From Muribaculaceae bacterium (lineage in GTDB: Bacteria > Bacteroidota > Bacteroidia > Bacteroidales > Muribaculaceae), in the NCBI GenBank assembly GCA_017483645.1, contig JAFUWD010000050.1, positions 1 to 50,082 of the forward strand: a stretch of DNA of 50,082 bases. The letters run 5' to 3'. Of this stretch, positions 13,877 through 30,845 are shown in pieces. Position numbers and translations under genes: made by a program. Below the pieces are notes generated by a model that was not told where the DNA came from, made no database searches, and saw only the letters and a program-made list of their open reading frames with translations. Positions within the stretch are counted from its first letter, which is position 1. Each line of letters opens with the position of its first letter.

Positions 13877-13927
13877 AGCAAATAGTTATTTAATGGAAAA
13901 TAGCATTGGATAACTTCATAATCATTG

Positions 13928-14060: not shown

Positions 14061-14092
14061 TGTTTTGTATCACATCAACCGACACTTCACTC

Positions 14093-15424: not shown

Positions 15425-15463
15425 CCGTTCCGAATTGTTTCTTTTTGTCGATGTACGACAATA

Positions 15464-16981
15464 TCAGCGCTCGATGAGCTTCTCACCGGTCATCTCGGCC
15501 GGTTGTTCCAATCCCATGATTTGCAAGATGCTTGGAGCCACGTCGGCCAGACGACCATCGCGCACAGTGGCATCGCGGTTCTCGGTGACGTAGATGCACG
15601 GCACGGGATTGAGCGAGTGGGCGGTGTTGGGGGTGCCGTCTTCATTGATGGCGTGGTCGGCATTGCCGTGGTCGGCGATGATAATCACCTCATAACCATG
15701 GCTGCGGGCGGCCTCCACGGTGTCGTGAACACACTCATCGATGGCCACGACGGCCTTTTGGATGGCCTCGTACACGCCGGTGTGCCCCACCATGTCGCCG
15801 TTGGCATAGTTCACCACGATGTAGTCGTATTTCTCCTCGCCGATGGCTGCCACCAGTTTGTCGCGCACCTCAAAAGCGCTCATCTCGGGCTTGAGGTCGT
15901 AAGTGGCCACCTTGGGCGACGGCACCAGGATGCGGTCTTCACCCTCGAAGGGCTCCTCACGCCCGCCGTTGAAGAAGAAAGTGACGTGGGCATACTTCTC
16001 GGTTTCGGCAATGTGCAGCTGTTTTTTGCCGCAAGCCGACAAATACTCGGCCAGCGTGTTCTGCACGTTCTCTTTTGGGAAAAGAATATGCACGCCGGTG
16101 AACGAGGCATCGTAGGGCGTCATGCAGTAGTACTGCAGGTCGGCAATGGTGTGCATGCCCTGCTCGGGCATGTCCTGCTGGGTGAGCACGATGGTCAACT
16201 CCTTGGCGCGGTCGTTGCGGTAGTTGAAGAAAATCACCACATCGCCTTCCTTGATGCGGCCGTCCACAGTGCTGTTGACGATGGGCTTGATAAACTCGTC
16301 GGTCACGCCCTCGTCGTAGCTTTCCTGAATGGCGCGAACCATGTTGTCGCTCTGGCGACCCACGCCGTCCACGAGCTGGTCGTAGGCAAGCTTGATGCGC
16401 TCCCAGCGCTTGTCGCGGTCCATGGCATAGTAGCGGCCTGTGACCGTTGCCACCACGCCGGTGGTGGCGGCACAATGCTGCTCCACCTGGGCCACAAAAC
16501 CCTTTCCACTCTCAGGGTCGGTGTCGCGGCCGTCCATGAAGCAATGGATGAACACATCCTTCAGGCCGTATTCATGAGCAATGTCGCACAGCGCAAACAA
16601 ATGCTCAAGCGAGCTGTGAACGCCGCCGTTACTGGTCAGGCCCATGAAGTGAATACCCTTGTCGGTGCGCTGCGCGTAGCTGAAGGCGCTCACCACCTCG
16701 GGATTCTTGAGAATGGAGCCGTCGGCAATCGACTTGTTGATTTTCACCAGGTCTTGATAGACGATGCGGCCGCCACCAATGTTGAGGTGCCCCACCTCAC
16801 TGTTGCCCATCTGCCCGTCGGGCAAGCCCACGTCCTCGCCGCAGGCCATGAGCTGACTGTGCGGATAGGTGTCCAGCAGATGGTCCCAATAGGGAGTTGG
16901 GGTACTATAAATTGCATTACTGCGGTCGTGAGGGCCGATGCCCCAGCCGTCGAGTATCATCAAAAGTGCTTTCTTTGCCAT
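15464..16981 (-). CDS. gpmI: 2,3-bisphosphoglycerate-independent phosphoglycerate mutase
   Basis: A 505-residue cytoplasmic glycolytic enzyme that interconverts 3- and 2-phosphoglycerate using two Mn ions. The N-terminal metal motif MILDGWG (Asp11), the phosphoserine-forming motif [17 protein letters not shown] (Ser61), and the C-terminal metal ligands [10 protein letters not shown] and NPVPCIYV are all present and the length is typical of GpmI. It starts at ATG 16981 shortly after a TAATTTTG promoter element and is transcribed alone; the flanking genes are convergent (RelA/SpoT-domain gene) or separated by about 130 bp. Confidence 0.96.
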
Positions 16982-17009
16982 GATTGTATTGGTTTTCTTG
17001 TTTTTTTTG

Positions 17010-17017
17010 CAAAATTA
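17010..17017 (-). promoter_or_regulatory. -7 element TAATTTTG for gpmI
   Basis: Minus-strand TAATTTTG, an exact consensus match 29 nt before the gpmI ATG; GTTG about 19 nt further upstream may serve as the -33 box. Confidence 0.65.
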
Positions 17018-17116
17018 CAAAAATCTCACCAATAGGCAACGCTGCGACAGGAACTATTTTTTCCGGCTTGGTTTTTATCCGTTGCTGGCAGCGTCAGGCA
17101 AGCGACGGCCTCAGTT

Positions 17117-17677
17117 TCAATTTATCCTCATGCTCAGAATGATGGCGCGTACTTCGGGGTCGCTGGCGTCAGTGCCCTCCACCTCAATTCTCATGAGTTT
17201 ATCTATGTACTTGGCCACCAGCAGCAACATGTCGCGGCCGTCTTCCACATAGGTGCAAGTCTTATAGGTTGTTGCGCCAATGGTCACATCTTTGCCTACA
17301 GTAGCGTTTATTCCTGTCACCATTTCCTGGATGGCAGCGTCGGGGGTCACGCCATCGGCCGGCACGATTACAAGGTGCACGGCCCGACCATCAAGGTAAT
17401 CCTCCTCGATGGTGCCTTTGTAAACAATCAGGCAGTAGTCGTCGTTGCTCATCACCTTCCATCCCTCGGGGAGTCCAACGGTGAAGTCGTCACGCTCCAC
17501 TTCTTCTTCAATGGGCGGTAAGGAGAGCGCCTCGACGGTATCCAGGTCGATACCGATACCCGGCCCTCCACACTGCACATTTTCTTGCTGATTTTTGGGG
17601 TTCTTGCATGCACAGGTCGCTGCAAGCATAGCCAAGCCTGCAACGGCCAAAAGTATAGTAATCAGTACTGTTTTCAT
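17117..17677 (-). CDS. Exported protein of unknown function, 186 aa
   Basis: ATG at 17677 (MKTVLI) is preferred to a TTG two codons earlier. The N-terminus is a hydrophobic signal with two candidate lipidation cysteines (LAATCACKN); neither is an ideal lipobox. A Pro/Glu linker (LSLPPIEEEVERDD) leads to a 120-residue domain with strands FTVGLPEGWKVMSNDDYC and HLVIVPADGVTPD, a helix, and YKTCTYVEDGRDMLLLVAKY. This arrangement recalls small lipoproteins that share a PsbP/Mog1-like alpha-beta fold, but the match is weak. No partner is evident; the next gene upstream is separated by a strong terminator, so it is probably transcribed alone. Confidence 0.7.
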   Translation of the reverse strand: MKTVLITILLAVAGLAMLAATCACKNPKNQQENVQCGGPGIGIDLDTVEALSLPPIEEEVERDDFTVGLPEGWKVMSNDDYCLIVYKGTIEEDYLDGRAVHLVIVPADGVTPDAAIQEMVTGINATVGKDVTIGATTYKTCTYVEDGRDMLLLVAKYIDKLMRIEVEGTDASDPEVRAIILSMRIN

Positions 17678-17721
17678 AATCAAAGAAATAAAAAGTGTAT
17701 CGCAGCCGAGAGAATAAAAAT

Positions 17722-17758
17722 TTGCCGGCCTGAGCCCACATTTTGCTCAGGCCGGCAA
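17722..17758 (-). terminator. Strong intrinsic terminator after the 89-aa gene
   Basis: A perfect 14-bp stem, TTGCCGGCCTGAGC (17722-17735) with GCTCAGGCCGGCAA (17745-17758), 9-nt loop. On the minus strand it is followed by ATTTTTATT, fitting termination of the 89-aa gene that ends at 17782. Confidence 0.8.
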
Positions 17759-17781
17759 CTCATTCGGTTAATTGCCGAGGA

Positions 17782-18051
17782 TTATTTCTCCTCTTTCTTG
17801 CCAAAGGTGTCTTTCAGGAAGTCAACAGCCTGGTCAACCATGCCCTCCACCTTGTCGTCGAGCGAGTCGGGTGCGATGGCTTTGCCCATTTCCACAGCTT
17901 TGGCTTTGAGTTCATCGGCATTCTCCAGCAAGTCACCTGCCTTGTCGCTTAGGAACTCTTTTGCCTGCTCCACAAGGCCGCTTCCTTCGCTCATCTTGCC
18001 GCTCAAAATCTCTTTTGCCTGATCCAACAGACCTTTGTTTTCTTCTGCCAT
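17782..18051 (-). CDS. Small amphipathic helical protein, 89 aa
   Basis: An 89-residue soluble protein without signal peptide or cysteine. It is almost entirely amphipathic helix with repeated patterns (LLDQAKEIL, LVEQAKEFLSDKAGDLLENA, MVDQAVDFLKD) and a highly charged tail KKEEK. This layout resembles small late-embryogenesis-like or MT0933-type antitoxin-like proteins, but I cannot assign it firmly and there is no toxin next to it. It has its own -7 element and its own terminator, so it is a single-gene unit, and such compact units with strong signals are often well expressed. Confidence 0.75.
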   Translation of the reverse strand: MAEENKGLLDQAKEILSGKMSEGSGLVEQAKEFLSDKAGDLLENADELKAKAVEMGKAIAPDSLDDKVEGMVDQAVDFLKDTFGKKEEK

Positions 18052-18112
18052 AGTTTTTCTTGGTTTTAGAGGTTAAACTTATTTGTTGAGTCCAAAGTTA
18101 GGATTTTTTTTG

Positions 18113-18120
18113 CAAAAATA
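18113..18120 (-). promoter_or_regulatory. -7 element TATTTTTG for the 89-aa gene
   Basis: Minus-strand TATTTTTG, exact consensus, about 62 nt before the ATG at 18051 and just downstream of the barrel gene that ends at 18142. Confidence 0.6.
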
Positions 18121-18141
18121 CAACTTTATTCAACAAATTCA

Positions 18142-18762
18142 TTACAATTCGAATTTATAACCCAGCATGAGGACACCACCCGTGTTCCTGAAAATGCCTT
18201 TGCCCATGTCAATGCCTTCGACGACGAGCGGCTTGTCCATGACTTTCGTCACTCCCAAGTGCCACAAGAGGCCCAAGCTCAAGCCATTTTCCCATTCGTA
18301 GCTCAAGCCCAGAGGGATAGAGAAATCAAAGGAGCGGGTATAATCGCCGGCTTTCACATCCACTGCCATACCGTTGACCTTGGCCGAGAGTGATGATTTC
18401 ACCACAAAACCAGGCTGCACACCCAAGCTGATTTTCATGCCGCGAATAATATAATAGTTGGCCAGCACGGGAATCATGATTTTGTCGTTTTTCCATGTGG
18501 CATCAATGCCATCAATCTTGGCACCACCCATTCCGTACATGGGAATAGCCGACACTGAGAATTTATTGGACACCTGATACTCCAACTCCACACCTGCGGC
18601 AAAGCCCCAGCGCAATTTTGTTCCCGAGGCGTCCTCGCCATAGAACTCGGTGGACGACACGCCCACCATTGGTTTCAATGAAAAACTATTCACTTCACTC
18701 TGTGCCTTCAGGCCCAAGGATGCTGCAACAGCGAGCATCACCACTAATGCGATTCTTTTCAT
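18142..18762 (-). CDS. PorT-like outer-membrane beta-barrel protein, paralogue 1
   Basis: A 206-residue small barrel with a signal peptide (residues 1-20, GLKAQ) and alternating strands (FAAGVELEYQVSNKFSVSAI, MISLGVQPGFVV-like segments, GVLMLGYKFEL) ending in Leu. It fits the Bacteroidota outer-membrane beta-barrel 2 (PorT-like) family. A second copy, about two-thirds identical by eye, lies at 19648-20268 on the other side of rplS. Shared strings include KNDKIMIPVLANYY, QPGFVVKSSL and GVTKVMD. Function not known; such proteins have structural or transport roles in the outer membrane. It is separated from rplS by the rplS terminator and has its own -7 element. Confidence 0.8.
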   Translation of the reverse strand: MKRIALVVMLAVAASLGLKAQSEVNSFSLKPMVGVSSTEFYGEDASGTKLRWGFAAGVELEYQVSNKFSVSAIPMYGMGGAKIDGIDATWKNDKIMIPVLANYYIIRGMKISLGVQPGFVVKSSLSAKVNGMAVDVKAGDYTRSFDFSIPLGLSYEWENGLSLGLLWHLGVTKVMDKPLVVEGIDMGKGIFRNTGGVLMLGYKFEL

Positions 18763-18794
18763 AATAAGTGTTATTAAATTAGTAATTTTTTTTG

Positions 18795-18802
18795 CAAAAA
18801 TA
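18795..18802 (-). promoter_or_regulatory. -7 element TATTTTTG for barrel paralogue 1
   Basis: Minus-strand TATTTTTG, exact consensus, 33 nt before the ATG at 18762. Confidence 0.6.
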
Positions 18803-18880
18803 CTCTCTTTGTTATATTTGCCCCTGCAAATGGTGCAAATTTAACACAATATTAACATTATGCGCGCACCACAAACAAAA

Positions 18881-18912
18881 CGTGCTGCAGCGCCATGTAG
18901 CACTGCAGCACG
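18881..18912 (-). terminator. Intrinsic terminator of rplS
   Basis: CGTGCTGCAGCGC (18881-18893) pairs with GCACTGCAGCACG (18900-18912), a 13-bp stem with one wobble and a 6-nt loop; on the minus strand TTTTGTTTGT follows. It lies 28 nt after the rplS stop. Confidence 0.8.
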
Positions 18913-18940
18913 ATGTTGTCCAAACAAAAGAGCATTCCTA

Positions 18941-19303
18941 TCAAGCCTCTTTCTTGACAATGCGGCGCTCGGGAATACGAGCCTTCTTGCCGGTGAGGTT
19001 GCGCAGATAGTAAATCTTGGCACGACGCACACGACCATGCTTGTTGATGGTGATGCTGTCGATAAACGGCGACTCCAGCGGGAAAATACGCTCCACACCG
19101 ATGTTGTCGCTGATTTTACGAACGGTGAAACGCTTCTTCTCACCGTCACCGTTGATGCGAATCACCACACCACGGTACTGCTGAATACGCTCCTTGTTAC
19201 CCTCCTTGATGCGATAAGCCACTGTCACAGTGTCGCCAGGGAAAAACTCAGGATGTTCTTTGCCGGTGGCAAATGCCTGCTCGGCAACTTTAATCAAATC
19301 CAT
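18941..19303 (-). CDS. rplS: 50S ribosomal protein L19
   Basis: A 120-residue ribosomal protein that sits at the 30S-50S interface. The start MDLIKVAEQ at 19303 matches the family; the frame is open further upstream but that part overlaps the leader and promoter. Family hallmarks are all present: FFPGDTVTVAYRIKEGNKER, QQYRGVVIRI, FTVRKISDNIGVERIFPLES, and the basic tail RRAKIYYLRNLTGKKARIPE. The bacterial L19 neighbours rpsP/rimM/trmD are absent here; instead it is flanked by two paralogous barrel genes and has its own promoter (19389-19396) and terminator, so it is a single-gene unit. Relics of its 5' region recur at 20421-20475 and 26695-26763. Confidence 0.97.
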   Translation of the reverse strand: MDLIKVAEQAFATGKEHPEFFPGDTVTVAYRIKEGNKERIQQYRGVVIRINGDGEKKRFTVRKISDNIGVERIFPLESPFIDSITINKHGRVRRAKIYYLRNLTGKKARIPERRIVKKEA

Positions 19304-19388
19304 TACTTCTTTATTTAATGCATTAAAAATCACTTCGCAATATACGCAAGCCACTCGATTTTCTTGCCAGAGATTGCGAAAAGCGGTG

Positions 19389-19396
19389 CAAAATTA
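19389..19396 (-). promoter_or_regulatory. -7 element TAATTTTG for rplS
   Basis: Minus-strand TAATTTTG, exact consensus, giving an untranslated leader of about 80 nt before the rplS ATG. A decayed copy of this block is found at 20421-20475. Confidence 0.7.
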
Positions 19397-19647
19397 CAAA
19401 AAATCCCTTAACCGACAATGATTTTTGACGAAAAATTTTTATCTTTAATTTTCTGCGGTCAGCAACACTGCAGAGCCTGAGCCTCAAGCCGGCGGTCACG
19501 ATAGCGGTGGCCACACTCAGTGTATTGGTGTGAACAATGGTGGGCTCAATGCTTCCTTACTGCCACACCACCGAGTGGATTGGAGGTCTTCTGAAAGCTC
19601 TATCCGAACAAAAAAATTCTGTTCTGAAAAAAGCAATCTCCAGATGG
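19397..19647. other. Intergenic stretch upstream of rplS with no recognised gene
   Basis: About 250 bp between the rplS promoter and the end of barrel paralogue 2. I see no ORF with family resemblance, no tRNA fold and no strong terminator. It is GC-richer than a typical intergenic region near 19460-19590, so it could be the remains of a gene. Confidence 0.4.
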
Positions 19648-20268
19648 TCACAGCTTGAACTTGTATCCCAGGGTTAGAACTCCACCGGTGTTCATGAAAT
19701 CATCTTTGCCTACATTAACATCTCCGATTATCATTTCGTTATCCATTACTTTAGTCACGCCCATATGCCACAGAATGCCCACACTCAACCCGTTAGTAAA
19801 CTCATAACAGATACCCAGCGGAATGGCAAAGTCAAAAGTGCGTGTCGACTTACTGGCATCAAAGTCCACACTGTTTCCATTTATCTTGGCATAAAGCGAT
19901 GACTTCACCACAAAGCCGGGCTGCAAACCCAGACTTAACTTGAAACCGGGCGCCACATAGTAGTTGGCCAGCACGGGAATCATGATTTTGTCGTTTTTCC
20001 ACACAAGATCTCCATCTTCCAACATGGCTCCACCCATTCCGTACATGGGGATAGCCGAGACCGAAAACTTTTGAGTGGCTTGATATTCCACTTCCACTCC
20101 GCCGGCAACCCCCCAACGCAATTTGGACCCTTGGGCACCATCACCGTAGAAAGTGGTCGCCGCCAATCCGACAATGGGTTTCAGCGAAAAATGTTTCACT
20201 TCGTTTTGGGCACTCATACCCATCGATGCTGCCATTACAAGCATCGCCACTAATACAATTCTTTTCAT
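19648..20268 (-). CDS. PorT-like outer-membrane beta-barrel protein, paralogue 2
   Basis: A 206-residue exported barrel of the same length as the copy at 18142-18762. Signal peptide residues 1-20 (GMSAQ), then the same order of strands (SLKPIVGLAATTFYG, VEVEYQATQKFSVSAIPMYG, GFKLSLGLQPGFVVKSSLYA) and C-terminal GVLTLGYKFKL. The two proteins differ mostly in surface-loop-like positions, consistent with an old duplication. It should sit in the outer membrane; the function is unknown. Its upstream region (20266-20390) is almost the same as a block at 26533-26655 where no intact gene follows. Confidence 0.8.
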   Translation of the reverse strand: MKRIVLVAMLVMAASMGMSAQNEVKHFSLKPIVGLAATTFYGDGAQGSKLRWGVAGGVEVEYQATQKFSVSAIPMYGMGGAMLEDGDLVWKNDKIMIPVLANYYVAPGFKLSLGLQPGFVVKSSLYAKINGNSVDFDASKSTRTFDFAIPLGICYEFTNGLSVGILWHMGVTKVMDNEMIIGDVNVGKDDFMNTGGVLTLGYKFKL

Positions 20269-20390
20269 AACCTATAATAAATACACTAATTCTTACTTGT
20301 TCTGATAAGCGCCACGAATTTACTGTTTTTTTATGGAATCATGGGGGGGGTGTAAAAACATTTAACATCACCTTAACACATGCGAAATGA
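20266..20390 (-). repeat. Barrel-gene upstream repeat, copy A
   Basis: This block, which begins at the start codon of barrel paralogue 2 and runs upstream, is roughly 90% identical by eye to 26533-26655. Shared landmarks are CTAATTCTTACTT, GATAAGCGCCAC, AATTTACTG plus a T run, ATGGAATCAT and a G run, and AACATCACCTTAACACA. It carries the gene's -7 element (20315-20322, minus-strand TAAATTCG). Confidence 0.85.
20315..20322 (-). promoter_or_regulatory. -7 element TAAATTCG for barrel paralogue 2
   Basis: Minus-strand TAAATTCG, one base from consensus, 47 nt before the ATG. The homologous position in the second repeat copy (26580-26587) reads TAAATTTG, an exact match. Confidence 0.5.
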
Positions 20391-20416
20391 GGGCGTGTCG
20401 AATTGACACACCCTCA
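20388..20416 (-). terminator. Hairpin at the position of the rplS terminator in the duplicated segment
   Basis: TGAGGGCGTGTC (20388-20399) pairs with GACACACCCTCA (20405-20416) with one mismatch and a 5-nt loop. It lies between the barrel promoter and an rplS promoter relic, the same order as the real rplS terminator, but now follows no gene and has a poor T tract. Confidence 0.5.
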
Positions 20417-20420
20417 CCAA

Positions 20421-20475
20421 CTTGCCATAGATTGCAGAAAGCGGTTCAAAATCACATAAAATCACTTAACGGACA
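20421..20475 (-). pseudogene. Relic of the rplS promoter region
   Basis: CTTGCCATAGATTGCAGAAA and the following bases align with 19363-19420 upstream of rplS (CTTGCCAGAGATTGCGAAAA). The -7 element has decayed from TAATTTTG to TGATTTTG on the minus strand (20447-20454). No rplS coding sequence remains beside it. Confidence 0.7.
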
Positions 20476-20536
20476 TGTTTATTTCTTTAAATTTTGTTCG
20501 GCACCGTTTTCTATAGTGTTTTCCTGCTTCTGCGCG

Positions 20537-20743
20537 TCAATTGCTTATAAGAATGTTCACCAGCGCGGTGATGTCGGCGATACCGGTTTCGCCATCGTTG
20601 TTCACATCGCTGCGGATATTCTCTGATTGGGCCAACACCAGCAAAGCCAGCATCGTCACGTCGGCAATGCCCACTTCGCCATCACCGTTCACGTCGCCGC
20701 GCAAGAAAGAAGCCGCACCCACGGTGAATGCCACACGACACAT
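20537..20743 (-). pseudogene. Dockerin type I domain remnant
   Basis: A 68-codon open stretch encoding two dockerin-type calcium-binding repeats: GDVNGDGEVGIADVTMLAL and SDVNNDGETGIADITALVN, each with the Asp/Asn-x-Asp-Gly-x loop followed by a helix. The frame stays open upstream of the first Met for about 30 more codons (to a TAG near 20850, inside the adenine deaminase gene), but no signal peptide or catalytic domain precedes it. It is therefore the C-terminal end of an exported protein whose main part is gone. Dockerin-like tails are common on secreted proteins of gut Bacteroidales. A short translated product cannot be excluded, but I consider it a remnant. Confidence 0.65.
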
Positions 20744-20806
20744 GGTGTTACCGTTATTCTGGTGGAATGTGTCGCCATATTCTCCGTAACGGCCCTTTCT
20801 GAAAAT

Positions 20807-20832
20807 TTCGTGTTCTTTCGTGTCTTTCGTGG
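20807..20832. repeat. Short TTTCGTG tandem repeat
   Basis: TTTCGTGTTC, TTTCGTGTC and TTTCGTGG follow each other between the dockerin remnant and the adenine deaminase stop. I recall similar strings in intergenic DNA of many Bacteroidota; its role is unknown. Confidence 0.5.
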
Positions 20833-20842
20833 TTAAATAACT

Positions 20843-22504
20843 CTATGTGACTGGCGCCATGTTCTGGCTGTCCCAGAGACAGCGGTCGGTGATCTTCAGC
20901 TCGGGGATGACGGGCAGGCATAGGAACGCCATCGTGATGAAGGGAGCCTTCAGCGTGCAGCCGGTCAGGACTGCCATGTCGCAGAGCAGCCGGCATCGGT
21001 AGGCCACCTCATGCCCGTCGAGCGGCGACATCAGCCCGGCAATGGGCAGTGCCATCTCGATCATCTCATCACTGGTTATTACCACCTGCCCCCCTCGCAT
21101 CGTTATGATTCGGTTGATGGCATGGACAATCAACTCGTCGTCGGAGCCGATAGCCACGATGTTGTGGCTGTCATGGGCCACTGACGAGGCAATGGCCCCG
21201 TGACGAATGCCGAAACCGCGCACCAGCCCGATGACGGGACGTGCCGACGGGGTGTAGCGGTTATAAACCACCACCTTCTGCACCTCGTGCCACGGGTAGT
21301 GAGAGTCCTTCATTGGGTCACCCGTCACCTCCACCACCTCGTGACCGGTATACAGGCTTTTGTCAGTGGCGTGGATGATGTGCTTGGTGTCGCCGCGACG
21401 GATGTCGAGCCGTATGTCTTCGGGCGTGATGAGAGTGGCGCAGAAATGGTTGGGATAACTATTAAGGTCGGCAATCGTCTGTCGACGAATGCTGATGCTT
21501 CCGAATGACTGATCGTAACTATAAACCTCAACGCCGCGGATGATGGTACTCTGTATCGCCAGATAAGGGCCGATGTTGTTGACCACAATAAATGTGGCCG
21601 GGTCGCCCTCTTGCAGCAGTCCCCAGTTCACGCCGTAGTGACGCTGAGGGTTGCAGCATGCCACCTGAAGGACGTTCCAAAAGTCGTGACCGTCGAGAAG
21701 TGCCCGTGCTGCAATGACATTGATGTGGCCACGCACAAGGTCGTCGGCATGGCAGTCGTCGGTACACAACATCACCTGATCGGGATATTCGTCGATGAGC
21801 GGGTGCAGCAGATTGTAGTCCTTGGCGGCACTGCCCTCACGAATGATGACCTTCATGCCGGCACGGATGCAGTCACGCCCCTCTTCGAGCGTCGTGCACT
21901 CATGGTCGGTAGACACACCAGCCTGGGCATAGAGCCGGCGACCTTCAAGCGAAAGACCGGGGGCATGGCCGTCGATGGGCTTGCCGGCCGCACGGGCAGC
22001 GGCCAACTTTGCCATCACCTCGCTGTCGCCATGCAGCACTCCCACGTAGTTCATCATCTCGGCCAAGAAGGCAATGTCATCGCGTTGCATCAGGGCTGTA
22101 ATCTCTTGACTGCCGATGGTCGCGCCGCTGGTCTCCACGTTGCCGCCTATCGACGGCACGCAACTGGGCGCACCGAACAAGAAGTTGAACTGCGCTTGGC
22201 GACCCAGGTGAATCATCACGTCAACCCCTTCAACGCCCATCACGTTTGCAATTTCGTGCGGGTCGGCAATGGCCCCGATGGTGCCGTGTTCCGACGCCAC
22301 ACGGGCAAACTCCGCGGGCAGCATCATACTGCTCTCGATGTGTACGTGGCTGTCGATAAATCCCGGCATCAGGTAAGGCCACGGCTCCATGCTGTCAGGT
22401 AGACTACACTGTCTTATTCTGCTGATGCGTCCGTCAGTCACTATTAACTCACCGTCATATATTTCGCGCCGCACCACATCCACGATATGTCCTTTGTATG
22501 TCAT
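20843..22504 (-). CDS. ade: Adenine deaminase
   Basis: A 553-residue cytoplasmic amidohydrolase that converts adenine to hypoxanthine and ammonia for purine salvage. The metal motif SHVHIESSMM (about residues 51-60), ADPHEIANVMG, the internal IDGHAPGLSG-like segment (IDGHAPGLSL), STDHECTT and CTDDCHADDLV, and the C-terminal VAHDSHNIVAIG and GGQVV blocks are all those of the Ade family, and the length is typical. ATG at 22504 begins MTYKGHIVDV. It has its own promoter (22608-22615) with a leader of about 97 nt and is transcribed alone. The 3' end abuts the dockerin remnant. Confidence 0.95.
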   Translation of the reverse strand: MTYKGHIVDVVRREIYDGELIVTDGRISRIRQCSLPDSMEPWPYLMPGFIDSHVHIESSMMLPAEFARVASEHGTIGAIADPHEIANVMGVEGVDVMIHLGRQAQFNFLFGAPSCVPSIGGNVETSGATIGSQEITALMQRDDIAFLAEMMNYVGVLHGDSEVMAKLAAARAAGKPIDGHAPGLSLEGRRLYAQAGVSTDHECTTLEEGRDCIRAGMKVIIREGSAAKDYNLLHPLIDEYPDQVMLCTDDCHADDLVRGHINVIAARALLDGHDFWNVLQVACCNPQRHYGVNWGLLQEGDPATFIVVNNIGPYLAIQSTIIRGVEVYSYDQSFGSISIRRQTIADLNSYPNHFCATLITPEDIRLDIRRGDTKHIIHATDKSLYTGHEVVEVTGDPMKDSHYPWHEVQKVVVYNRYTPSARPVIGLVRGFGIRHGAIASSVAHDSHNIVAIGSDDELIVHAINRIITMRGGQVVITSDEMIEMALPIAGLMSPLDGHEVAYRCRLLCDMAVLTGCTLKAPFITMAFLCLPVIPELKITDRCLWDSQNMAPVT

Positions 22505-22607
22505 ATTTAAGTTTCAAAAGTGAAAACTACTGTTATAGTTGGGCAAAGTCGCTGAATCTCAAAATCTTTATGGCAATAAAGACAAACTAAATCACAACTG
22601 CGCAGTA

Positions 22608-22615
22608 CAAAGGTA
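22608..22615 (-). promoter_or_regulatory. -7 element TACCTTTG for ade
   Basis: Minus-strand TACCTTTG, exact consensus. The roughly 97-nt leader down to the ATG contains two small hairpins (CTTTAT/ATAAAG and GTTTCA/TGAAAAC) but no riboswitch fold that I recognise. Confidence 0.6.
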
Positions 22616-22685
22616 AGAATATTTTTTTGAAATGAGGCTATTTGCCTATAGTTTCTTGTCTTCTATGTTGAAATCCAAATCATTA

Positions 22686-22723
22686 CCCCACCATTCAGTC
22701 GCTTCGCTCTTGTCATGGTGGGG
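22686..22723. terminator. Hairpin between ade and the C10 peptidase gene
   Basis: CCCCACCAT (22686-22694) pairs perfectly with ATGGTGGGG (22715-22723) over a 20-nt loop, followed on the plus strand by TTTTC. It lies about 70 nt beyond the stop of the minus-strand peptidase gene, where it may end that transcript although the T tract is on the wrong side. A second small hairpin (ATCGCC TTC GGCGAT) follows near 22738. Confidence 0.35.
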
Positions 22724-22792
22724 TTTTCACTCTAGTAATCGCCTTCGGCGATGGCTCCGGCGTTCAGCCGGTATTTGTGGCGGTGACTGGTG

Positions 22793-25238
22793 TTATCGCA
22801 GGAGGACCTTGCGGGAGATACCGTCGGCCACGACTATGTATAGGCCTGCGGCGAGGGCGCGGGCCTCGCTGCCGGTGGCGATGAGGGTGCCGCGGCTGTC
22901 GTAGACGGCCACGCTGCTCGCCCCGCTGACGCTGATAGTGCCATTGCCGGCGCGCACGGTGACGGCGTCGGCGTTCACGGCGCTTACCGCGGTGGGTAAC
23001 GCCGCAATCTTAAACGGCGAATTATCGCCCCAATCCGAATTGTCGGCGACAAAGCGCAAACACATGCGATAGACCTTTCCCGGCACGCCTTCGAAAGCCG
23101 ACGCAATGCTGACTTTCACCTTCTCGCCCGGAGCGATGGTGACAATGTCGCTGATGCCGAGTTCGGCCATAAACGTAAGGTCGTCGCTCATAATCTTATA
23201 AGGAATATTACCGACGAAGGTGCCGGAGCCGGTGTTGGTGAGTTCCACCATGCCGGAGACTTGTCCTGACGGCATTATGTAAGCGTCGGGGGTAATCTGC
23301 GAAGTGATTTCGAGGTTATAATCCTTGCTCAAGAGCACTGAGAAATCGAAATCGCCGCCTATCACCTTGTTGTTCTTGTCAAGCACCCTCAGATAGTATT
23401 CACCGGCGGTGGCGGGCGCGGGTATTTGAGCCGTCATAATCACGTCTTTGCCCGGCGCTATGGTAACGTATTCACCTTCGATAATAGTAGGCTCGACGCT
23501 CATATCTTTCGGTTGGTAACTATATTTCACCACGCCCTCATAGTAAGAGCCGTTGTTGCGAATAGTGCTGGTGACCTTCATCTGAGAGTCGGTGCCTACT
23601 TGCTCGGGACAGTCAATGACGGGGACAGCGAGATTGGCAGGTGCCGACTCCTCGTTATAGTACACCACACCATCCTTCACTGTCACTTCGATATAGCCGG
23701 GCAGAGTGGCACTGTGGTCATACTCTCTAAAGTCATTGACGCCGGCTTCGGGACACTTATACATCAGCCACAGACGATAGACACCGTCGGCGACATCCGG
23801 CGAGGCCATGAACGTGGTATTGGCGTATAAGACATTCGGCTCTATAAAACTGAGGTATTGCCCCATCGTGTAGTCGGTGGTGTAGGAGTTGGTATCGTAT
23901 TGCTGACCCACTTGATTACCTTCCTCATCACACAAATCGAAGCGCAGGGTAACGTTCAACGTGGGGCCGCAACCATAGCCCACCACTCTTACGCTATTTA
24001 TAATCATCGGCATCAAAGAGCCTGTCGGGAAACTGTTTACCGAAGGCTTGAAATTCTCGACACACAATTCCATACCCTTCTCGGGGGCGGGTTCTCCGCA
24101 GTCGGGGTATAGTCCAGTAATCAGCCCTTGCAGAGAATTATATCCGCCTTCAAAGGAGCCAATCCCTTGCACGCCGGGCGAAAGGGCTGTGATGAGGAAA
24201 TAGCCGTTTGACGTGCCTCCCCAGCCCCAGTTGATGTGATAATAGCCCCTTGTGTCATAGCCGTCGATGACAAAGGCGTGACTGCCGCCGGAGCGCACGT
24301 AACCTGCGAATAACACGGGGTGGCTGTTATCGAGTTCGTTGTCGATAAGCGCCTCCCATTCGGTACCGGTCATCGAGTAACGCGAGTAATTGCGCATCGC
24401 CTTGTTATAACCGAAGTGGTCGCGTATGGCTTCCATCATGTTGAAAATATCCACGCCACTGTTACCACCGTAGTTGGTACCCGCCGCCACGCCTATATGG
24501 TACATCAGCGTGGCGACGGCATCGGCCTGCCGGTCGGTGTAGTTACCGTTCTCGTAGTCGTTGAGCATATCATCCCAGCGGTAGGTGGTGTTACCGAAGT
24601 CGGCGCTGAGCGTCTGCGGCGAGGTCTCGTTGACGTTACACTCGTAGGAGTGAGAGCCCACGCCCTGCTCCGGCCACCGGTAGTAGTTCATGATTTGCGC
24701 GGTGGCGGTGATTACGCAACCCGTCGCCGAGCGTTCGGTTGTTCCGTCAGCGGTGTAGGTCGGACACAGGTTGTTGTACGGCTCCGATTGGTTCCACGTT
24801 GTTTTGAGCAACGGAGCGACGGTTTTGTCGCGCACGGCGCGTGCGGGAGGGGCGGCCAACGCGGGATTATCGCGCAAGGCGGTAATCTCGTCGCTATAGA
24901 CGCCGAGCATATACTCCATGCCGTCGGGCACGTTGGCGGGGTCTATCGCACCCTCGTCGCCGTAAGCGAGCACGACGGGCGCTTTGTCATCGCCGGCGAT
25001 AACCACCCAGCCGGCGGCGGCGCTGTTGTTGAACACGTAATAGGCTGGCGCGGCCGCTGCCGACGCTTTCTTCGCCCTCAGCGCCAACGACGGACGTGAG
25101 GCGGCGGTCACCTGGTGCGACCCAAAGAACTGCGCGGCGCGTTCCGCCGCTTCCTGCTCGCTCACCGTAGCGCCTTGCGAAGCAAGAGCCACGATGGCGA
25201 ACAGTGCAAAACATATTTTCTTCATTTCATTTTTCATT
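22793..25238 (-). CDS. C10-family cysteine peptidase (streptopain-like) with T9SS-like C-terminal tail
   Basis: A protein of about 814 residues counted from MKNEMKK at 25238 (MKKICF at 25226 is the alternative). Signal peptide residues 1-23; a Spi/C10 propeptide about 25-140; then PLLKTTWNQSEPYN, the catalytic Cys174 in TGCVITATAQIMNYYRWP, the catalytic His320 in GGSHAFVIDGYD, and NWGWGG. A middle region (about 390-730) is made of beta-sandwich-like repeats with ITPDAYIMPSG and DIVTIAPGEKVKVS. The last 70 residues (VAVYDSRGTLIATGS, LAAGLYIVVADGISRKVLLR) have the pattern of a type A C-terminal sorting domain of the type IX secretion system. It should be secreted or surface-attached and degrade proteins or host peptides. 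Its GC-rich coding style differs slightly from its neighbours, and it lies beside an IS110 remnant. Confidence 0.88.
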
Positions 25239-25497
25239 CGAAAATATTTGCGTTGTGAAGTACTGAAAATCAACACTTCGGGTTAATAATTCAATTACAG
25301 GACAGACGAAAGAAAGCACACTGCTTGCGGCGGCATACGGCTATTATCGTAGGCGTTTATGTTTTAAAACGACCGGATGGGTCAGGAAATTTCATTCGCG
25401 TGCTCGTAGCAACAATCTTTGCCTCTCAGTCGTTTAGGCCAGTTTCATAGTCGGGCTCGATGTCCCAGTAAAAATCGGCCTTAGAACTCGTGCGCCG

Positions 25498-26441
25498 TCA
25501 GGCACTTTCTTTCTCGGGCGGGTTCTCTCCGAGTAGTTTATTGAGTTGCTCCCTGTGATACTTGATTTGAGCTTGTTTGCGACGCTCGTCAAGATGGGTG
25601 TCACCGAGTTCCTGATAGGCCGTGCCGTCTTTGAGCATATGGTAGATGACCACAAGCATCTCTGCGGCAATCGCGACTAATACGCGTTTCTTCCCTCGCC
25701 GTGCTGCGAGTCTCTTATATCGAGCCGAGAAGTAGGTGTTCTTGGTCCGCGTCGCACACCACGCACATTCTGTCATTATCGCTTTGGTGGCTTTGTTGCC
25801 GTGGTTGGTGTGTGAGCTTTTTTTTACCTGCGCTCTCGTTGTTGCCCGGAGCCAGACCCGCCCATGACTTGAGGTGGTCGGCCGTGGGGAATACTTCCAT
25901 GTCTACGCCTATCTCTGCGAGCAGTTCGCGCACGGAGGTCGTGTCCATACCGGGCACTTCGCAGAGTTGGCGTATCCTGTCTTCCAGTGGTTGCATGCGG
26001 CGCTCAATCTCGCAGTCGAGGTGGTCTATCTCCGCCTCTATGTTACGGATGCTCGCGTGACGGCACAAAACTGCCCTTGAGCGGTCCGGCTCGCAACAGC
26101 TTGCATATCCATGCCGAGTCCTTCTTGTCGGTCTTGTGCCCGGGCACATACTTGATGTGACGCGCGTTCACCACAAGGATGGTGAAACCGCCTGGCTCAA
26201 GGATATTCATCACTGGCTTCCAGTATACACCTGTGCTCTCCATCGCCACATGAGTGACGCCCAGAGACATTAGCCATTCTTTCAATTCTGTCAAAGATCT
26301 CGTCGTCGACTTGAATGTACGGGTCTCACTCTCGATTCCCGAACCAGTCACTGTCGCCACGATTTCTTTCTTGTGGGCATCAAGGCCGCAGCCTCGCTCC
26401 ACGACCTGTTCAAAGGGCACTTCTTGTTTCTTACTTGCCAT
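25498..26441 (-). pseudogene. IS110-family transposase, inactivated by deletion and frameshift
   Basis: Three frames together encode an IS110/IS116/IS902-type DEDD transposase. The N-terminal part (26441-26055) has GLDAHKK, AMESTGVYWKPV and KTDKKDSAWI, the catalytic Asp/Glu/Asp positions. At about 26058 the frame changes and roughly 110 residues of the linker, normally after the GSFVPSRE motif, are missing. The second frame gives IEAEIDHLDCEIERRM, VPGMDTTSVRELLAEIG and WAGLAPGNNESAGKKK. After a run of eight A (about 25818-25825) the frame changes again, giving RYKRLAARRGKKRVL and DGTAYQELG to the stop at 25498. One frameshift at a poly-A run could be slippage, but the internal deletion indicates a dead copy. 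Confidence 0.88.
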
Positions 26442-26471
26442 AGTAAATTGCCTTCAATTAGTTACACGTGG

Positions 26472-26479
26472 CAAAGGTA
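26472..26479 (-). promoter_or_regulatory. -7 element TACCTTTG of the IS110-type transposase
   Basis: Minus-strand TACCTTTG, exact consensus, 31 nt before the transposase ATG at 26441. Confidence 0.55.
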
Positions 26480-26532
26480 ACTAATTACGATGACTTTTCA
26501 TTCATTTTGGCGAAAGCAGTTCATGTCCGTTT

Positions 26533-26655
26533 CATAACCTAATAAATATACTAATTCTTACTTATTCTGATAAGCGCCACAAATTTACTGTTTTTTTTAT
26601 GGAATCATAGGGGGGAGTAAAAGCATTTAACATCACCTTAACACAAGCGACATGA
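26533..26655 (-). repeat. Barrel-gene upstream repeat, copy B (orphan promoter)
   Basis: Near copy of 20266-20390, starting at a CAT that corresponds to the barrel start codon and keeping the -7 element (26580-26587, TAAATTTG on the minus strand). Only ATGAAACG of a barrel gene remains before the similarity ends and IS110-type DNA begins, so a third barrel gene was probably disrupted here. Confidence 0.8.
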
Positions 26656-26657
26656 AC

Positions 26658-26678
26658 AAAACGAGCGCTGCTCGTTTT
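26658..26678. terminator. Perfect hairpin at the rplS-terminator position of copy B
   Basis: AAAACGAGC (26658-26666), loop GCT, GCTCGTTTT (26670-26678). With A and T tracts on both sides it could terminate in either direction. It occupies the same position relative to the barrel promoter as the rplS terminator. Confidence 0.6.
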
Positions 26679-26694
26679 GCTGACCAAACATCTA

Positions 26695-26763
26695 CCTTGC
26701 CGGTGGCAAATGACTGCTCGGAAGCTTTATGCTAATCTATAATGTCTTTATTTCATGCATTAT
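26695..26763 (-). pseudogene. rplS: Relic of the rplS 5' end
   Basis: CCTTGCCGGTGGCAAATGAC and the following bases align with 19257-19326, covering the first codons and leader of rplS (TTGCCGGTGGCAAATGCC, then TCTTTATTTAATGCAT against TCTTTATTTCATGCAT). The start codon has been lost (ATG changed) and the body of the gene is absent. About 80% identity by eye. Confidence 0.75.
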
Positions 26764-26958
26764 TCCCTCTGCCGACTGCACATTATCATAAATCTTTCTT
26801 ATCGGATGAGGTAATTAAACTCAATCATTGACAGGACTATTTTCAGTTGCCTCTAACTTGGAAATGGAACTACTGCAAACACCATCACTGAATAGTTTGC
26901 CGGAAAACGCCTAAATGTTAATTATTGTTAACACTCAATAAATTTATGTCATGTTTAC
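26764..26958. other. AT-rich intergenic stretch with no recognised gene
   Basis: About 195 bp without ORF, terminator or repeat that I can support; it contains an imperfect palindrome TGTTAA-N6-TTAACA near 26917 whose meaning is unclear. Confidence 0.4.
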
Positions 26959-26989
26959 TTGTTATAATGTAAAGTTTACATTACTTTTG
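26959..26989 (+). promoter_or_regulatory. Promoter of the membrane-protein/XRE-regulator operon
   Basis: TTG at 26959-26961, a 20-nt spacer, then TACTTTTG at 26982-26989: a complete Bacteroidota promoter. The spacer is occupied by a palindrome, so a regulator can cover it. Confidence 0.7.
26967..26981. promoter_or_regulatory. Operator-like palindrome 1, ATGTAAAGTTTACAT
   Basis: A perfect 7-bp inverted repeat (ATGTAAA/TTTACAT) around one central base, lying in the spacer between the -33 and -7 elements. The likely binder is the small XRE protein encoded at 27513-27713 in the same operon (autorepression). Confidence 0.6.
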
Positions 26990-26993
26990 TTGC

Positions 26994-27007
26994 GTTAAAC
27001 TTTACAT
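26994..27007. promoter_or_regulatory. Operator-like palindrome 2, GTTAAACTTTACAT
   Basis: On the other strand this reads ATGTAAAGTTTAAC, matching palindrome 1 at 12 of its first 14 bases. It lies just downstream of the -7 element over the expected transcription start. Confidence 0.55.
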
Positions 27008-27028
27008 CATCTCTAATAAAAAGGAATT

Positions 27029-27523
27029 ATGAACAGTAATTATCTATTTCCGACAATGTGCAAGCGGGTGGGCTGGGTGCTCTTTGTTCCGTTTGCCATC
27101 ATGGGCCTAATCCTGATATTCGGCCATAACGAGTGGCTCCCCGCTTTACCGTGCAAGGTCATCGCTCTATTCAATGGTCCCGAGTGGGCCACCGATAAGA
27201 CAGTCGGACCGTCGCCCATCGTGCAAATCATCACCGACAACATGATTGAAGAGGTCATCATCTTTGGCCTGGCCATTGCCTTAGCTCTAATCGCTTTCTC
27301 GCGCGAGAAAGACGAGGATGAGTTTATCGAGCATCTACGTGCCAAATCGTTGGTGTGGTCGCTTAAGGTCAACATGGCTCTCATCCTGGTTGCCACATTA
27401 TTCCTTTATAATTCGAATTTTATGGCATTCACCTGGATTTATTTATTTGGTGTACCCCTGCTATTCGCCATTAAATTCGAAGTTGAGTTGTACTGTTTCA
27501 GACACCAGAGCGATGAAGAATAA
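27029..27523 (+). CDS. Integral membrane protein paired with an XRE regulator
   Basis: A 164-residue protein with about four transmembrane segments (VGWVLFVPFAIMGLILIF near residues 14-31, a second at IIFGLAIALALIAF near 77-90, then VNMALILVATLFLY and FTWIYLFGVPLLFAI) and short charged loops, including EKDEDEFIEHLRAK. No enzyme motif is visible. The stop overlaps the start of the downstream XRE regulator by 11 nt. Pairs of a small membrane protein and a small HTH protein, with the membrane gene first, are common in Bacteroidota and Firmicutes; the membrane protein may modulate the regulator, which is inference. Confidence 0.8.
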   Translation: MNSNYLFPTMCKRVGWVLFVPFAIMGLILIFGHNEWLPALPCKVIALFNGPEWATDKTVGPSPIVQIITDNMIEEVIIFGLAIALALIAFSREKDEDEFIEHLRAKSLVWSLKVNMALILVATLFLYNSNFMAFTWIYLFGVPLLFAIKFEVELYCFRHQSDEE

Positions 27524-27713
27524 TATCAGAGTAGAACGTGCCATCGTGCGCATGACACAACAGCAGTTGGCCGAGGCCGTGAGCGTGAGCCGCCAGACAA
27601 TCAACGCCATCGAGTCGTGCAAGTATGTGCCATCGGCAGTGCTGGCAATGAAGATTGCCCGCACTTTCGGCAAGCCCGTCGAGAGCATTTTCAGCCTCGA
27701 GGAAGAAGACTGA
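27513..27713 (+). CDS. Small XRE-family (HTH_3) transcriptional regulator
   Basis: A 66-residue protein made only of a lambda-repressor-like helix-turn-helix: MTQQQLAEAVSVSRQTINAI is the HTH, followed by YVPSAVLAMKIARTFGKPVE and IFSLEEED. The start ATG at 27513 lies inside the end of the membrane-protein gene; the frame continues upstream but only as the antisense-like continuation of that gene. This YozG-like class acts as a dimeric DNA-binding repressor. The two palindromes at 26967-27007 are the obvious target, implying autoregulation of this operon. Confidence 0.9.
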   Translation: MKNNIRVERAIVRMTQQQLAEAVSVSRQTINAIESCKYVPSAVLAMKIARTFGKPVESIFSLEEED

Positions 27714-27750
27714 GGTAAATTAAAATTGAGAATTGAAAATCCAAAAAATT

Positions 27751-30039
27751 ATGACCATGGAATTTATAGCACTCCTCTTTCTGGCTGCGATAATCTATGT
27801 GATTGTCGTGGTTCGAGATGTGAACTATAAGGTTGACCACCTGAGCCAACGTGTCGAGGATATAGCCTATCGGCAACAAGTTGCCGATAGCGTGGCGTTC
27901 CACCCTACCATAGGTACACCAATGACCGAGGCAGAGGTTCACATCGAACCAAAACCCGAACCTGTGCCCGAACCTGTTCAGCCCATGCCCACTCCGCCGC
28001 CTCTTGTGCAATGGGAACCTGAGGAAGTTGAGCAGCCCATCGCAGAAGCCGAAACCGAACCGCTGCAAGTTTTGGAAGAGGATGTTCTCGAACCAGTGGC
28101 TCACAAAGGCCGCAACTTCGAGAAGTTTATCGGCGAAAACCTGTTTGGCAAGATTGGTGTCATTGTGTTTATCATCGGCATCGGATTCTTTGTCAAGTAT
28201 GCCATCGACAAAAACTGGATCAACGAGGTGGCACGCACCATCTCGGGCTATGCGGTGAGCGTAGCGATGCTGGGCATCGGAGCCCGACTGCATCGGCAGT
28301 ACCGCACCTACAGTTCGCTCATCATGGGCGGTGCTTTCGGTGTGGCCTACGTGACCACTGCTGTGGCTTATCACTATTACCATCTGTTCGGTTCGACGGT
28401 GGCCTTCAGCATCCTGGTTGGAGTGACCATCCTGATGGCTGCCCTTGCCTATATCACCGACAAGCGCGAGTTGGCCATTATCGCCCTCGTCGGCGGCTTC
28501 ATTGCACCATTCATCGCCAGTAACGAGAATGGCAGTGTGGTTGCCTTGTTCAGCTATATCCTTGTACTGAATCTGGGCATGACAGCATTGTCGCTAATCA
28601 AACGCTGGAGCGAGCTGCCCATCATTGCTTGCGTCGCCACTTGGGTATTGCTCTTGTTGCTTGGCAATGGTTATGATGTGGACAAAAACCGCACACAACG
28701 CATCTTGTTTGCGTTTAGCACATGCTATCTGCTGCTCTTCATGGCCTCGGCCACCTATACGCTGCATCGTGACGGTAGTCAATGGCAGAGCCGTATTCTT
28801 GCTTCGATGCTGGTTTTCAATAGTTTTATCTATCTACTCTTCAACATCGATTGCGGTACCTATTTTGCCCACTGGAATGATGGCCTATTTTGTATATCCA
28901 TCGCCTTGTGCCATGTGGCTTCTATCGCACTCATCTGGCGCAAACGCGACAACAATCCGATAGCCTACCATACCCATCTATCACTGGCCATCTCATTCCT
29001 TGCCATTGCCGTGCCTATGGAGTTCAGCAACTTCCAGATTGTCACACTTGTGTGGGCCGTACAGACTGCTATCATATTCTATTTGTACGCCCGTTCACAC
29101 ACGCACATATTTGCTTGGGGCAGTTTTGCACTGGCGGCTCTCACCCTGATTAGTTATCTGACCCACAGCCTTTTCACTGCGCCATCGGGGGAACACATGT
29201 TTGCCAACAGCGACTTTTCCTGTGGCATCGTCTATGCCGGCAGCGCATTGGCTGTGGCGCTGATGTGCGACCGCAATCTGGGGCAGTTGCGCCAGGCGTG
29301 GAAAATTAAGTGGGGGTTCATCACCATCATCTCCTATCTTGTTGCTATCGGAGTATTCTACAAGGCATTTGTCACCGAGTTCAATTGCCACATGCCCGCT
29401 CCGCTCTCGGGAGCCATGATCGGGTTGTTCACTGCGGCGCTGGTACTGGGATTGTGCCTCGCATTCTACAAGCGCATGAACATCAACAAGAATCTGGCAT
29501 TCTACCTCCTGATGGGCTTTGTGAGCATGATGACCCTTGCCGTTCAGGCTGTAGTGACGACAACTCCCATCCACGGCATCGCAATCATCGCCATGCATTG
29601 GCTCAATGTGATAGCAGTTGCCGCCACCCTGGCATTCATCGCACGGCAGTACTACCTGGCAAACTGGCCTGGCGAACGCTTGGTGACGATAGTGCTCAAT
29701 GTGTTGGCAACGGTCGCGGTTGTGTCTTTCGCCCGATTGCTGTTGTTGCAGACTGGAATCACCGACTTCAGCGCAGGCTTGTCACTGTCGTTGGCTGTGG
29801 CTGGATTTGCCCAGATGCTCCTGGGCATGCGGCTGCATCACAAGGATTTTCGCATCGTCAGCCTGTTCACCCTCGGTTTGGTGTTGCTCAAACTTGTGCT
29901 GAACGATCTGTTGAGAATGCCGGCTGTGGGCAAGATCATCACCTTTATCGTGCTGGGCTTGTTGTTGCTCGTTCTTTCGTTCCTCTACCAGCGCCTGAAA
30001 AACGTCCTCTTCGATGACAATGATGATGTAACCAAATAA
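27751..30039 (+). CDS. DUF2339 multi-pass membrane protein
   Basis: A 762-residue protein. Start MTMEFIALLF at 27751 (or MEFIAL at 27757) is preferred to a TTG upstream. The N-terminus has one helix (FIALLFLAAIIYVIVVV), then a soluble segment with a coiled coil (YKVDHLSQRVEDIAYRQQ) and a Pro/Glu-rich linker (about 60-115). From about residue 125 the protein is about 20 or more transmembrane helices, starting FIGENLFGKIGVIVFIIGIGFF, which is the conserved DUF2339 entry motif. The function of DUF2339 proteins is unknown. It starts 37 nt after the XRE gene and may be in the same transcript. A perfect hairpin follows at 30060. Confidence 0.85.
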   Translation: MTMEFIALLFLAAIIYVIVVVRDVNYKVDHLSQRVEDIAYRQQVADSVAFHPTIGTPMTEAEVHIEPKPEPVPEPVQPMPTPPPLVQWEPEEVEQPIAEAETEPLQVLEEDVLEPVAHKGRNFEKFIGENLFGKIGVIVFIIGIGFFVKYAIDKNWINEVARTISGYAVSVAMLGIGARLHRQYRTYSSLIMGGAFGVAYVTTAVAYHYYHLFGSTVAFSILVGVTILMAALAYITDKRELAIIALVGGFIAPFIASNENGSVVALFSYILVLNLGMTALSLIKRWSELPIIACVATWVLLLLLGNGYDVDKNRTQRILFAFSTCYLLLFMASATYTLHRDGSQWQSRILASMLVFNSFIYLLFNIDCGTYFAHWNDGLFCISIALCHVASIALIWRKRDNNPIAYHTHLSLAISFLAIAVPMEFSNFQIVTLVWAVQTAIIFYLYARSHTHIFAWGSFALAALTLISYLTHSLFTAPSGEHMFANSDFSCGIVYAGSALAVALMCDRNLGQLRQAWKIKWGFITIISYLVAIGVFYKAFVTEFNCHMPAPLSGAMIGLFTAALVLGLCLAFYKRMNINKNLAFYLLMGFVSMMTLAVQAVVTTTPIHGIAIIAMHWLNVIAVAATLAFIARQYYLANWPGERLVTIVLNVLATVAVVSFARLLLLQTGITDFSAGLSLSLAVAGFAQMLLGMRLHHKDFRIVSLFTLGLVLLKLVLNDLLRMPAVGKIITFIVLGLLLLVLSFLYQRLKNVLFDDNDDVTK

Positions 30040-30059
30040 CCGGCAAGCACTTAAATCAT

Positions 30060-30103
30060 ACATAGAGTTGCGTAACACAACATTATGTTACGCAACTCTA
30101 TGT
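30060..30103. terminator. Perfect 18-bp hairpin after the DUF2339 gene
   Basis: ACATAGAGTTGCGTAACA (30060-30077) and its exact inverted copy TGTTACGCAACTCTATGT (30086-30103) around an 8-nt loop. It begins 20 nt after the DUF2339 stop and is bidirectional, between two convergent units, but has no T tract on the plus strand (GTTAAAAACC follows). Confidence 0.6.
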
Positions 30104-30220
30104 GTTAAAAACCCACACAAAGTTGAGTGTTTCAAAATTAAATTATAATTTCGCCAACGAGTCATTCCTTATTCAACAAAGAGTTATTTATTGCACTTCG
30201 TTTGTGAATTGAGTGCGGGG

Positions 30221-30814: not shown

Positions 30815-30845
30815 GATTCAAGGAATTGGTTTTTCGTTGGGGAAA

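What the first reader, a model, noticed from the sequence alone, without database searches (positions are those of the whole stretch)
18142..26763. Decayed triplication of a barrel-gene/rplS regulatory segment
Seen directly: the order barrel start and promoter, hairpin, rplS leader occurs three times. Copy 1 is intact (18142-19396). Copy 2 has an intact barrel gene (19648-20268) plus an rplS promoter relic (20421-20475) behind a hairpin (20388-20416). Copy 3 has only the barrel upstream block (26533-26655), a hairpin (26658-26678) and a start-codon-less rplS 5' relic (26695-26763). The upstream blocks of copies 2 and 3 are about 90% alike while copy 1 has diverged. Duplication of a ribosomal-protein gene with loss of the extra coding parts but survival of promoters and terminators leaves promoters that drive nothing known.
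Basis: seen in the sequence. Interest (0 to 1): 0.72.

Follow-up and report, generated by a model that had tools for sequence, protein, structure and literature searches.

The report
Decayed rplS–barrel gene duplicates
A bacterial chromosome carries one working ribosomal-protein gene beside two related outer-membrane genes, plus two broken fragments of extra copies, one cut off by a jumping gene; this is mostly ordinary gene duplication and decay.

Summary
The repeats are real. Two barrel genes (66% identical proteins) flank the only full rplS. A second barrel upstream block (26530-26655) matches the first at 117 of 129 columns, and rplS fragments lie at 20421-20475 and 26697-26762, all far above shuffled controls. 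Copy 1's barrel upstream region shows no detectable similarity to the others.

Likely history: duplication of an rplS-terminator-barrel unit, then decay. The barrel pair predates the split of the three genomes that carry a barrel beside rplS. 'Surviving promoters' holds only in part. Relic 2 lost both promoter boxes and half of the rplS leader hairpin. Relic 3 has no rplS promoter, leader hairpin or start codon. Copy 3's barrel block keeps a -7-like box but no -33 box, and now faces a transposon.

Copy 3 stops exactly at the barrel ATGAAA because an IS110-type element (25238-26529) sits there. Nine right ends of this element, in 5 of 101 genus genomes, are all followed by ATGAA[A/C].

The intact rplS leader resembles the known L19-Flavobacteria leader (RF03130); three of eight relatives' loci reach Rfam's cut-off, the window's copy does not. 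Overall ordinary, with a mildly interesting transposon.

The parts
18142..18762 (-). barrel gene 1 (outer-membrane beta-barrel, 206 aa)
   Evidence: PF13568 and PF13505 above cut-off; orthologues in G012 and G013
18881..18912 (-). terminator-like hairpin after the working rplS
   Evidence: 14-pair stem plus T tail
18941..19303 (-). rplS, the only full copy found (ribosomal protein L19, 120 aa)
   Evidence: PF01245 E 1.3e-43; one match in own genome, which is 79% complete
19338..19376 (-). L19-type leader hairpin of the working rplS
   Evidence: RF03130 at 16.9 bits, below its gathering score of 31.5; L061, L055 and L051 reach it; covariation
19389..19418 (-). rplS promoter, TTG-N19-TAATTTTG
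   Evidence: Read from the sequence; the pattern is kept in 28 of 33 leaders. The box names are recalled from Bacteroidetes promoter literature.
19648..20268 (-). barrel gene 2 (206 aa)
   Evidence: PF13505 and PF13568 above cut-off; 87% aa orthologue in G012
20263..20390 (-). barrel 2 upstream block (copy 2)
   Evidence: 117/129 to copy 3, 126/138 to G012
20388..20416 (-). hairpin of copy 2
   Evidence: -24.8 kcal/mol; not listed as terminator-like; G012 keeps one arm only
20421..20475 (-). relic 2: rplS promoter and 5' part of the leader, both promoter boxes lost
26530..26655 (-). copy 3 barrel-type upstream block, ending at ATGAAA
26658..26678 (-). hairpin of copy 3
   Evidence: -15.8 kcal/mol; not listed as terminator-like
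26697..26762 (-). relic 3: end of the rplS 5'UTR and first codons, start codon lost
25238..26529 (-). IS110-type element between two ATGAAA motifs; transposase domains lie in different frames
   Evidence: PF01548 and PF02371 in separate open frames; ends set by copies in other genus genomes
25387..25499 (-). non-coding stretch of the IS with two target-like segments (25442-25449 and 25390-25398)
   Evidence: Sequence; related stretches in G438 (77%) and G292 (74%) hold TATGAAAC and ATGAAATTT, but the bases just before ATGAAATTT differ
22793..25225 (-). C10-type peptidase gene directly downstream of the IS right end
   Evidence: PF01640 E 1.1e-68 with PF13734

Best explanation
A unit rplS-terminator-barrel was duplicated, most likely in tandem, before the split of the three genomes that carry a barrel beside rplS. 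Both barrel genes were kept; the extra rplS decayed to a dead promoter fragment (relic 2). A further copy of the barrel 2 upstream region with a piece of the rplS 5' end (copy 3) arose at about the time the window's genome and G012 separated. An IS110-type element that inserts at ATGAA[A/C] then landed on copy 3's barrel start codon. The right side of the element is a C10 peptidase gene, so either copy 3's block had already become joined to that gene or two IS copies recombined. Shown: the homologies, the gene tree, the lost promoter boxes in relic 2, the IS ends and their target. Inferred: the order of events, the tandem mechanism and the lack of function of the relics.
For: Homology above shuffles. 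The unrooted barrel tree sets barrel 2 of G000 and G012 (support 1.0) apart from barrel 1 of G000, G012 and G013; fourfold-site differences are 0.52-0.57 between barrel 1 and barrel 2 against 0.18-0.28 between orthologues. Of 30 rplS loci examined (own genome included, up to 1.5 kb held on each side), only those of G000, G012 and G013 have a barrel match. A match to the whole copy 2/3 block is found in 2 of 101 genus genomes; G111 has a 35-base partial hit, and at most 7 candidates per genome were scored. Three-way block comparison: 111 columns shared, 4 private to copy 2, 4 to copy 3, 6 to G012, 5 with gaps. Relic 2 lost both promoter boxes. IS right ends: 9 of 9 followed by ATGAAA (7) or ATGAAC (2); left ends, window included: 5 of 6 after TTATGAAA, 1 after TTACGAAA.
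Against: Copy 1's barrel upstream region has no detectable likeness to copies 2/3. Relics 2 and 3 are different pieces of rplS, and no genome searched shows an intermediate with two rplS genes. G013's contig ends just upstream of rplS, so its lack of barrel 2 is not shown. The window is a contig of a 79%-complete assembly.
Confidence: 0.8

Rival explanations
1. Copy 3's barrel promoter block was captured by the C10 peptidase gene and drove it; the IS later split promoter and gene at the shared ATGAAA. This adds a step to the best explanation rather than replacing it.
For: A simple insertion leaves on its two sides what was contiguous before it; here the left flank is the block and the right flank the peptidase start.
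Against: Recombination between two IS copies, one at each gene, gives the same structure. No natural empty site was found: full block matches lie at three places in 101 genomes, and the nearest peptidase relatives are 49% identical or less.
Confidence: 0.35
2. The relics are functional: the extra promoters or hairpins regulate barrel 2 or act on neighbours.
For: The copy 2 block is well kept between G000 and G012 (126/138) while copy 1's upstream region is not (140/190); copy 3 keeps TAAATTTG, as G012's copy 2 does; one sigma-70-type match (9 of 12) lies in copy 3's block at 26573-26545.
Against: Relic 2 has lost both promoter boxes and half of the leader hairpin; G012 has lost relic 2 and half of the copy 2 hairpin; relic 3 has no rplS promoter or start codon; the sigma-70 scan found 12 sites against 9.1 expected.
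Confidence: 0.1
3. Assembly artefact (chimeric contig).
For: The assembly has 101 contigs and is 79% complete; an IS lies next to copy 3.
Against: The relics differ from the working gene at about 17% of aligned columns, so they are not collapsed repeats; both sides of the copy 3 segment are collinear with G012 (20655-22682 and 30215-40758).
Confidence: 0.06

Closest known systems
Tandem segmental duplication with pseudogene decay
   Same: Paralogous intact gene pair, truncated relics of the neighbour gene, no start codon in one relic
   Different: Relics are only 55 and 66 bp long, and copy 3 is bounded by a target-specific IS
L19-Flavobacteria ribosomal leader (RF03130; L19 leaders in Flavobacteria are mentioned in PMC7247131, passages seen)
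   Same: Hairpin with CAA[CU]CUCUG and the matching 3' strand just before rplS
   Different: Seen here in a Bacteroidales genus; the window copy scores below Rfam's cut-off
IS110/IS1111 elements with seekRNA or bridge RNA (PMC11187229, PMC11208160; passages seen, plus one section of the first)
   Same: DEDD and Transposase_20 domains, a non-coding stretch with target-like segments, a fixed target
   Different: The target here is ATGAA[A/C]; the non-coding stretch with these segments is downstream of the transposase, as described for IS1111; no RNA was measured

Membership tests
Tandem duplication with decay | Copies alike beyond chance | tested here: met
   Blocks and relics; barrel genes. Copy 1's upstream region does not meet it.
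Tandem duplication with decay | Extra copies of rplS not coding | tested here: met
   One rplS match in own genome; relics read directly
L19-Flavobacteria leader RF03130 | Score at or above the gathering cut-off | tested here: not met
   Window 16.9 bits against 31.5. Of 8 relatives' loci searched, L061 (34.8), L055 (32.8) and L051 (31.5) meet it, L054 (30.6) is just below, and L035, L047, L057 and L060 show no RF03130 match at E up to 5.
L19-Flavobacteria leader RF03130 | Hairpin before rplS kept by covariation | tested here: met
   28 distinct of 32 sequences: 5 of 13 pairs with changes on both sides (15 of 500 shuffles as high), 98.6% of cells paired and covariation score 0.255 (0 of 500 each); but further pair types are no more than in shuffles (448 of 500 as high). 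Single-sequence folds of 4 leaders are only slightly better than shuffles (z -1.05 to -1.22).
IS110 family | DEDD (PF01548) and Transposase_20 (PF02371) domains | tested here: met
   in two separate frames
IS110 family | Fixed target sequence | tested here: met
   9 of 9 right ends followed by ATGAA[A/C]; 6 of 6 left ends after TTATGAAA or, once, TTACGAAA
IS110 family | Guide RNA from the non-coding region matching the target | tested here: inconclusive
   Two target-like segments in 25387-25499; fold no better than shuffles; RNA not measured

The most novel reading that the evidence does not exclude
The IS110-type element is guided to the ATGAAA that starts many secreted-protein genes; insertion keeps the downstream reading frame whole but cuts it from its promoter, and recombination between copies swaps promoters between genes, as may have happened to join the copy 3 barrel promoter to the C10 peptidase.
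Probability: 0.12. Interest if true: 0.55.

Novelty: new member of a known kind. Interest (0 to 1): 0.28.

Why it matters
As a duplication with decay it is ordinary. It shows how an rplS neighbourhood in one Bacteroidales lineage picked up paralogous outer-membrane genes and shed the extra ribosomal gene. The side result, an IS110-type element with an ATGAA[A/C] target and target-like segments in its non-coding region, would be a useful natural case for RNA-guided insertion at start codons if confirmed.

Tried and rejected
Dispersed repeat: not supported; full matches to the block lie at three places in 101 genomes, window included (at most 7 candidates per genome scored). Second functional rplS: none seen; of 61 genomes searched 59 have a match, and the double matches in G007, G017 and G021 are adjacent pieces of one interrupted gene. 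Known RNA at Rfam's cut-off: none in the window. Start-codon preference of the IS: not shown; 5 of 8 distinct right flanks (G065 and G003 counted as one site) have an open frame of 65 codons or more, against 95 of 174 ATGAA[A/C] sites in 11 stretches of DNA at hand. Promoter and terminator scan: 12 promoter-like sites against 9.1 expected and 11 terminator-like against 9.0, uninformative as totals. IS ends in viral contigs: 6 hits to the 17-base right-end pattern, none followed by ATGAA; no hit to the left-end pattern. Barrel 2 relatives in viral contigs: none confirmed. IS DNA in 393 genomes of the order: 14 with partial matches, no full second copy. Dropped rows: of 34 rplS loci, L059 was left out of the promoter count (gene cut at the contig end), and L058 and L059 of the leader alignment; of the 5 leaders without the full promoter pattern, L034 is cut by its contig end and L055, L056 and L061 keep the -7 box. 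The G000-G013 rplS fourfold count came from a slice in the wrong frame and is discarded. Papers: no paper in the library held 'insertion sequence', IS110 and ATGAAA together; the other searches were used as listings. PMC7247131 and PMC11208160 were seen in passages, PMC11187229 in passages and section 12.

Full report
Setting. The window is contig C15 of a 2.1 Mb, 79%-complete genome. All genes discussed are on the minus strand.

Observation. Barrel 1 (18142-18762), rplS (18941-19303) and barrel 2 (19648-20268) are intact. The barrel upstream blocks of copy 2 (20263-20390) and copy 3 (26530-26655) align at 117/129; relic 2 aligns to the rplS promoter at 53/64 and relic 3 to the rplS 5' end at 55/66, all well beyond 300 dinucleotide shuffles. 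Copy 1's barrel upstream region does not align to either block above chance. The three hairpins exist but have different stems, and only the first is in the terminator scan's list.

Relatives. G012 has the same barrel 2-rplS-barrel 1 order. Its copy 2 block runs into one arm of the copy 2 hairpin and then jumps into a dockerin fragment, so relic 2 is missing there. G012 has no match to 26764-30214, and its DNA between the equivalents of 22682 and 30215 is a different 2 kb. In 27 of 30 rplS loci examined there is no barrel match in the flank held, up to 1.5 kb on each side. A match to the whole block occurs in 2 of 101 genus genomes, the window's own and G012; G111 has a 35-base partial hit.

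Dating. In an unrooted tree, barrel 1 of G000, G012 and G013 is set apart from barrel 2 of G000 and G012, so the barrel pair most likely predates the split of the three genomes. The copy 2, copy 3 and G012 blocks have 4, 4 and 6 private changes, so copy 3 is about as old as the G000-G012 split; the order cannot be settled.

State of the relics. Of 33 genus rplS leaders, 28 keep TTG-N19-TAnnTTTG; relic 2 keeps neither box. The naming as -33 and -7 boxes is recalled. The barrel blocks themselves have no TTG box at the usual distance: copy 3 and G012's copy 2 have TAAATTTG, the window's copy 2 TAAATTCG. So copy 3 may or may not be a live promoter. The leader hairpin before rplS is supported by covariation in 32 sequences (28 distinct; 5 of 13 pairs changed on both sides, though not every measure beats its shuffles). 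It is a relative of RF03130: three of eight relatives' loci reach its cut-off, while the window copy scores 16.9 against 31.5. Relic 2 keeps only the 5' strand of that hairpin and relic 3 none of it, so by inference neither can take part in L19 feedback.

The transposon. Copy 3's likeness to barrel 2 stops exactly after ATGAAA. Copies of the flanking element in G005 and G074 lie, like the window's, after TTATGAAA (5 of 6 left ends, window included; one TTACGAAA). Nine right ends in 5 of 101 genomes are followed by ATGAAA (7) or ATGAAC (2). Two of the nine (G065, G003) are the same site and match only the last 96 bp of the element. Nearly all G005 and G074 ends lie at contig ends, so no second full copy was seen. 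The element carries IS110-type domains in separate frames. Its non-coding stretch 25387-25499 holds TATGAAAC and CGAATGAAA, like the left and right junctions. Related stretches in G438 and G292 keep TATGAAAC and ATGAAATTT; the bases just before ATGAAATTT differ, by one in G438 and two in G292. Open frames beginning ATGAAA lie downstream in both, but the element ends there were not determined. The stretch does not fold better than shuffles, and a preference for start codons over other ATGAA[A/C] sites was not shown.

Verdict. The repeats are real, the duplication reading is mostly right, and the surviving-promoter reading mostly wrong or unproven. The finding is ordinary evolution with an informative IS.

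Noticed in passing
window 20655-22682: The adenine-deaminase segment is 97% identical to G012, while 500-base steps in 13474-18948 are 80-94%, suggesting recent exchange.
   Followed up: partly
window 19338-19376 and L061, L055, L051: rplS leaders of this Bacteroidales genus belong with or near L19-Flavobacteria RF03130; the paper passages seen mention the L19 leader for Firmicutes and Flavobacteria.
   Followed up: yes
window 20343-20350 and 26610-26615: A G tract of 8 bases in the copy 2 block against 6 in copy 3 and in G012; of three internal length differences in the block alignment two are in homopolymers. Possible slippage site, untested.
   Followed up: no
window 19490-19549 and L062 15244-15305: Short shared fragment (score 51, maximum 28 in 300 plain shuffles) between the rplS-barrel 2 spacer here and the deaminase-dockerin spacer in G012.
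   Followed up: partly
L152 3525-3620 and L153 2529-2624: Only the last 96 bp of the IS110-type element stands directly before the same signal-peptide-like gene start in two genomes.
   Followed up: partly
   Followed up: no
G011:C6, G029:C59: Several related barrel genes stand in tandem.
   Followed up: no
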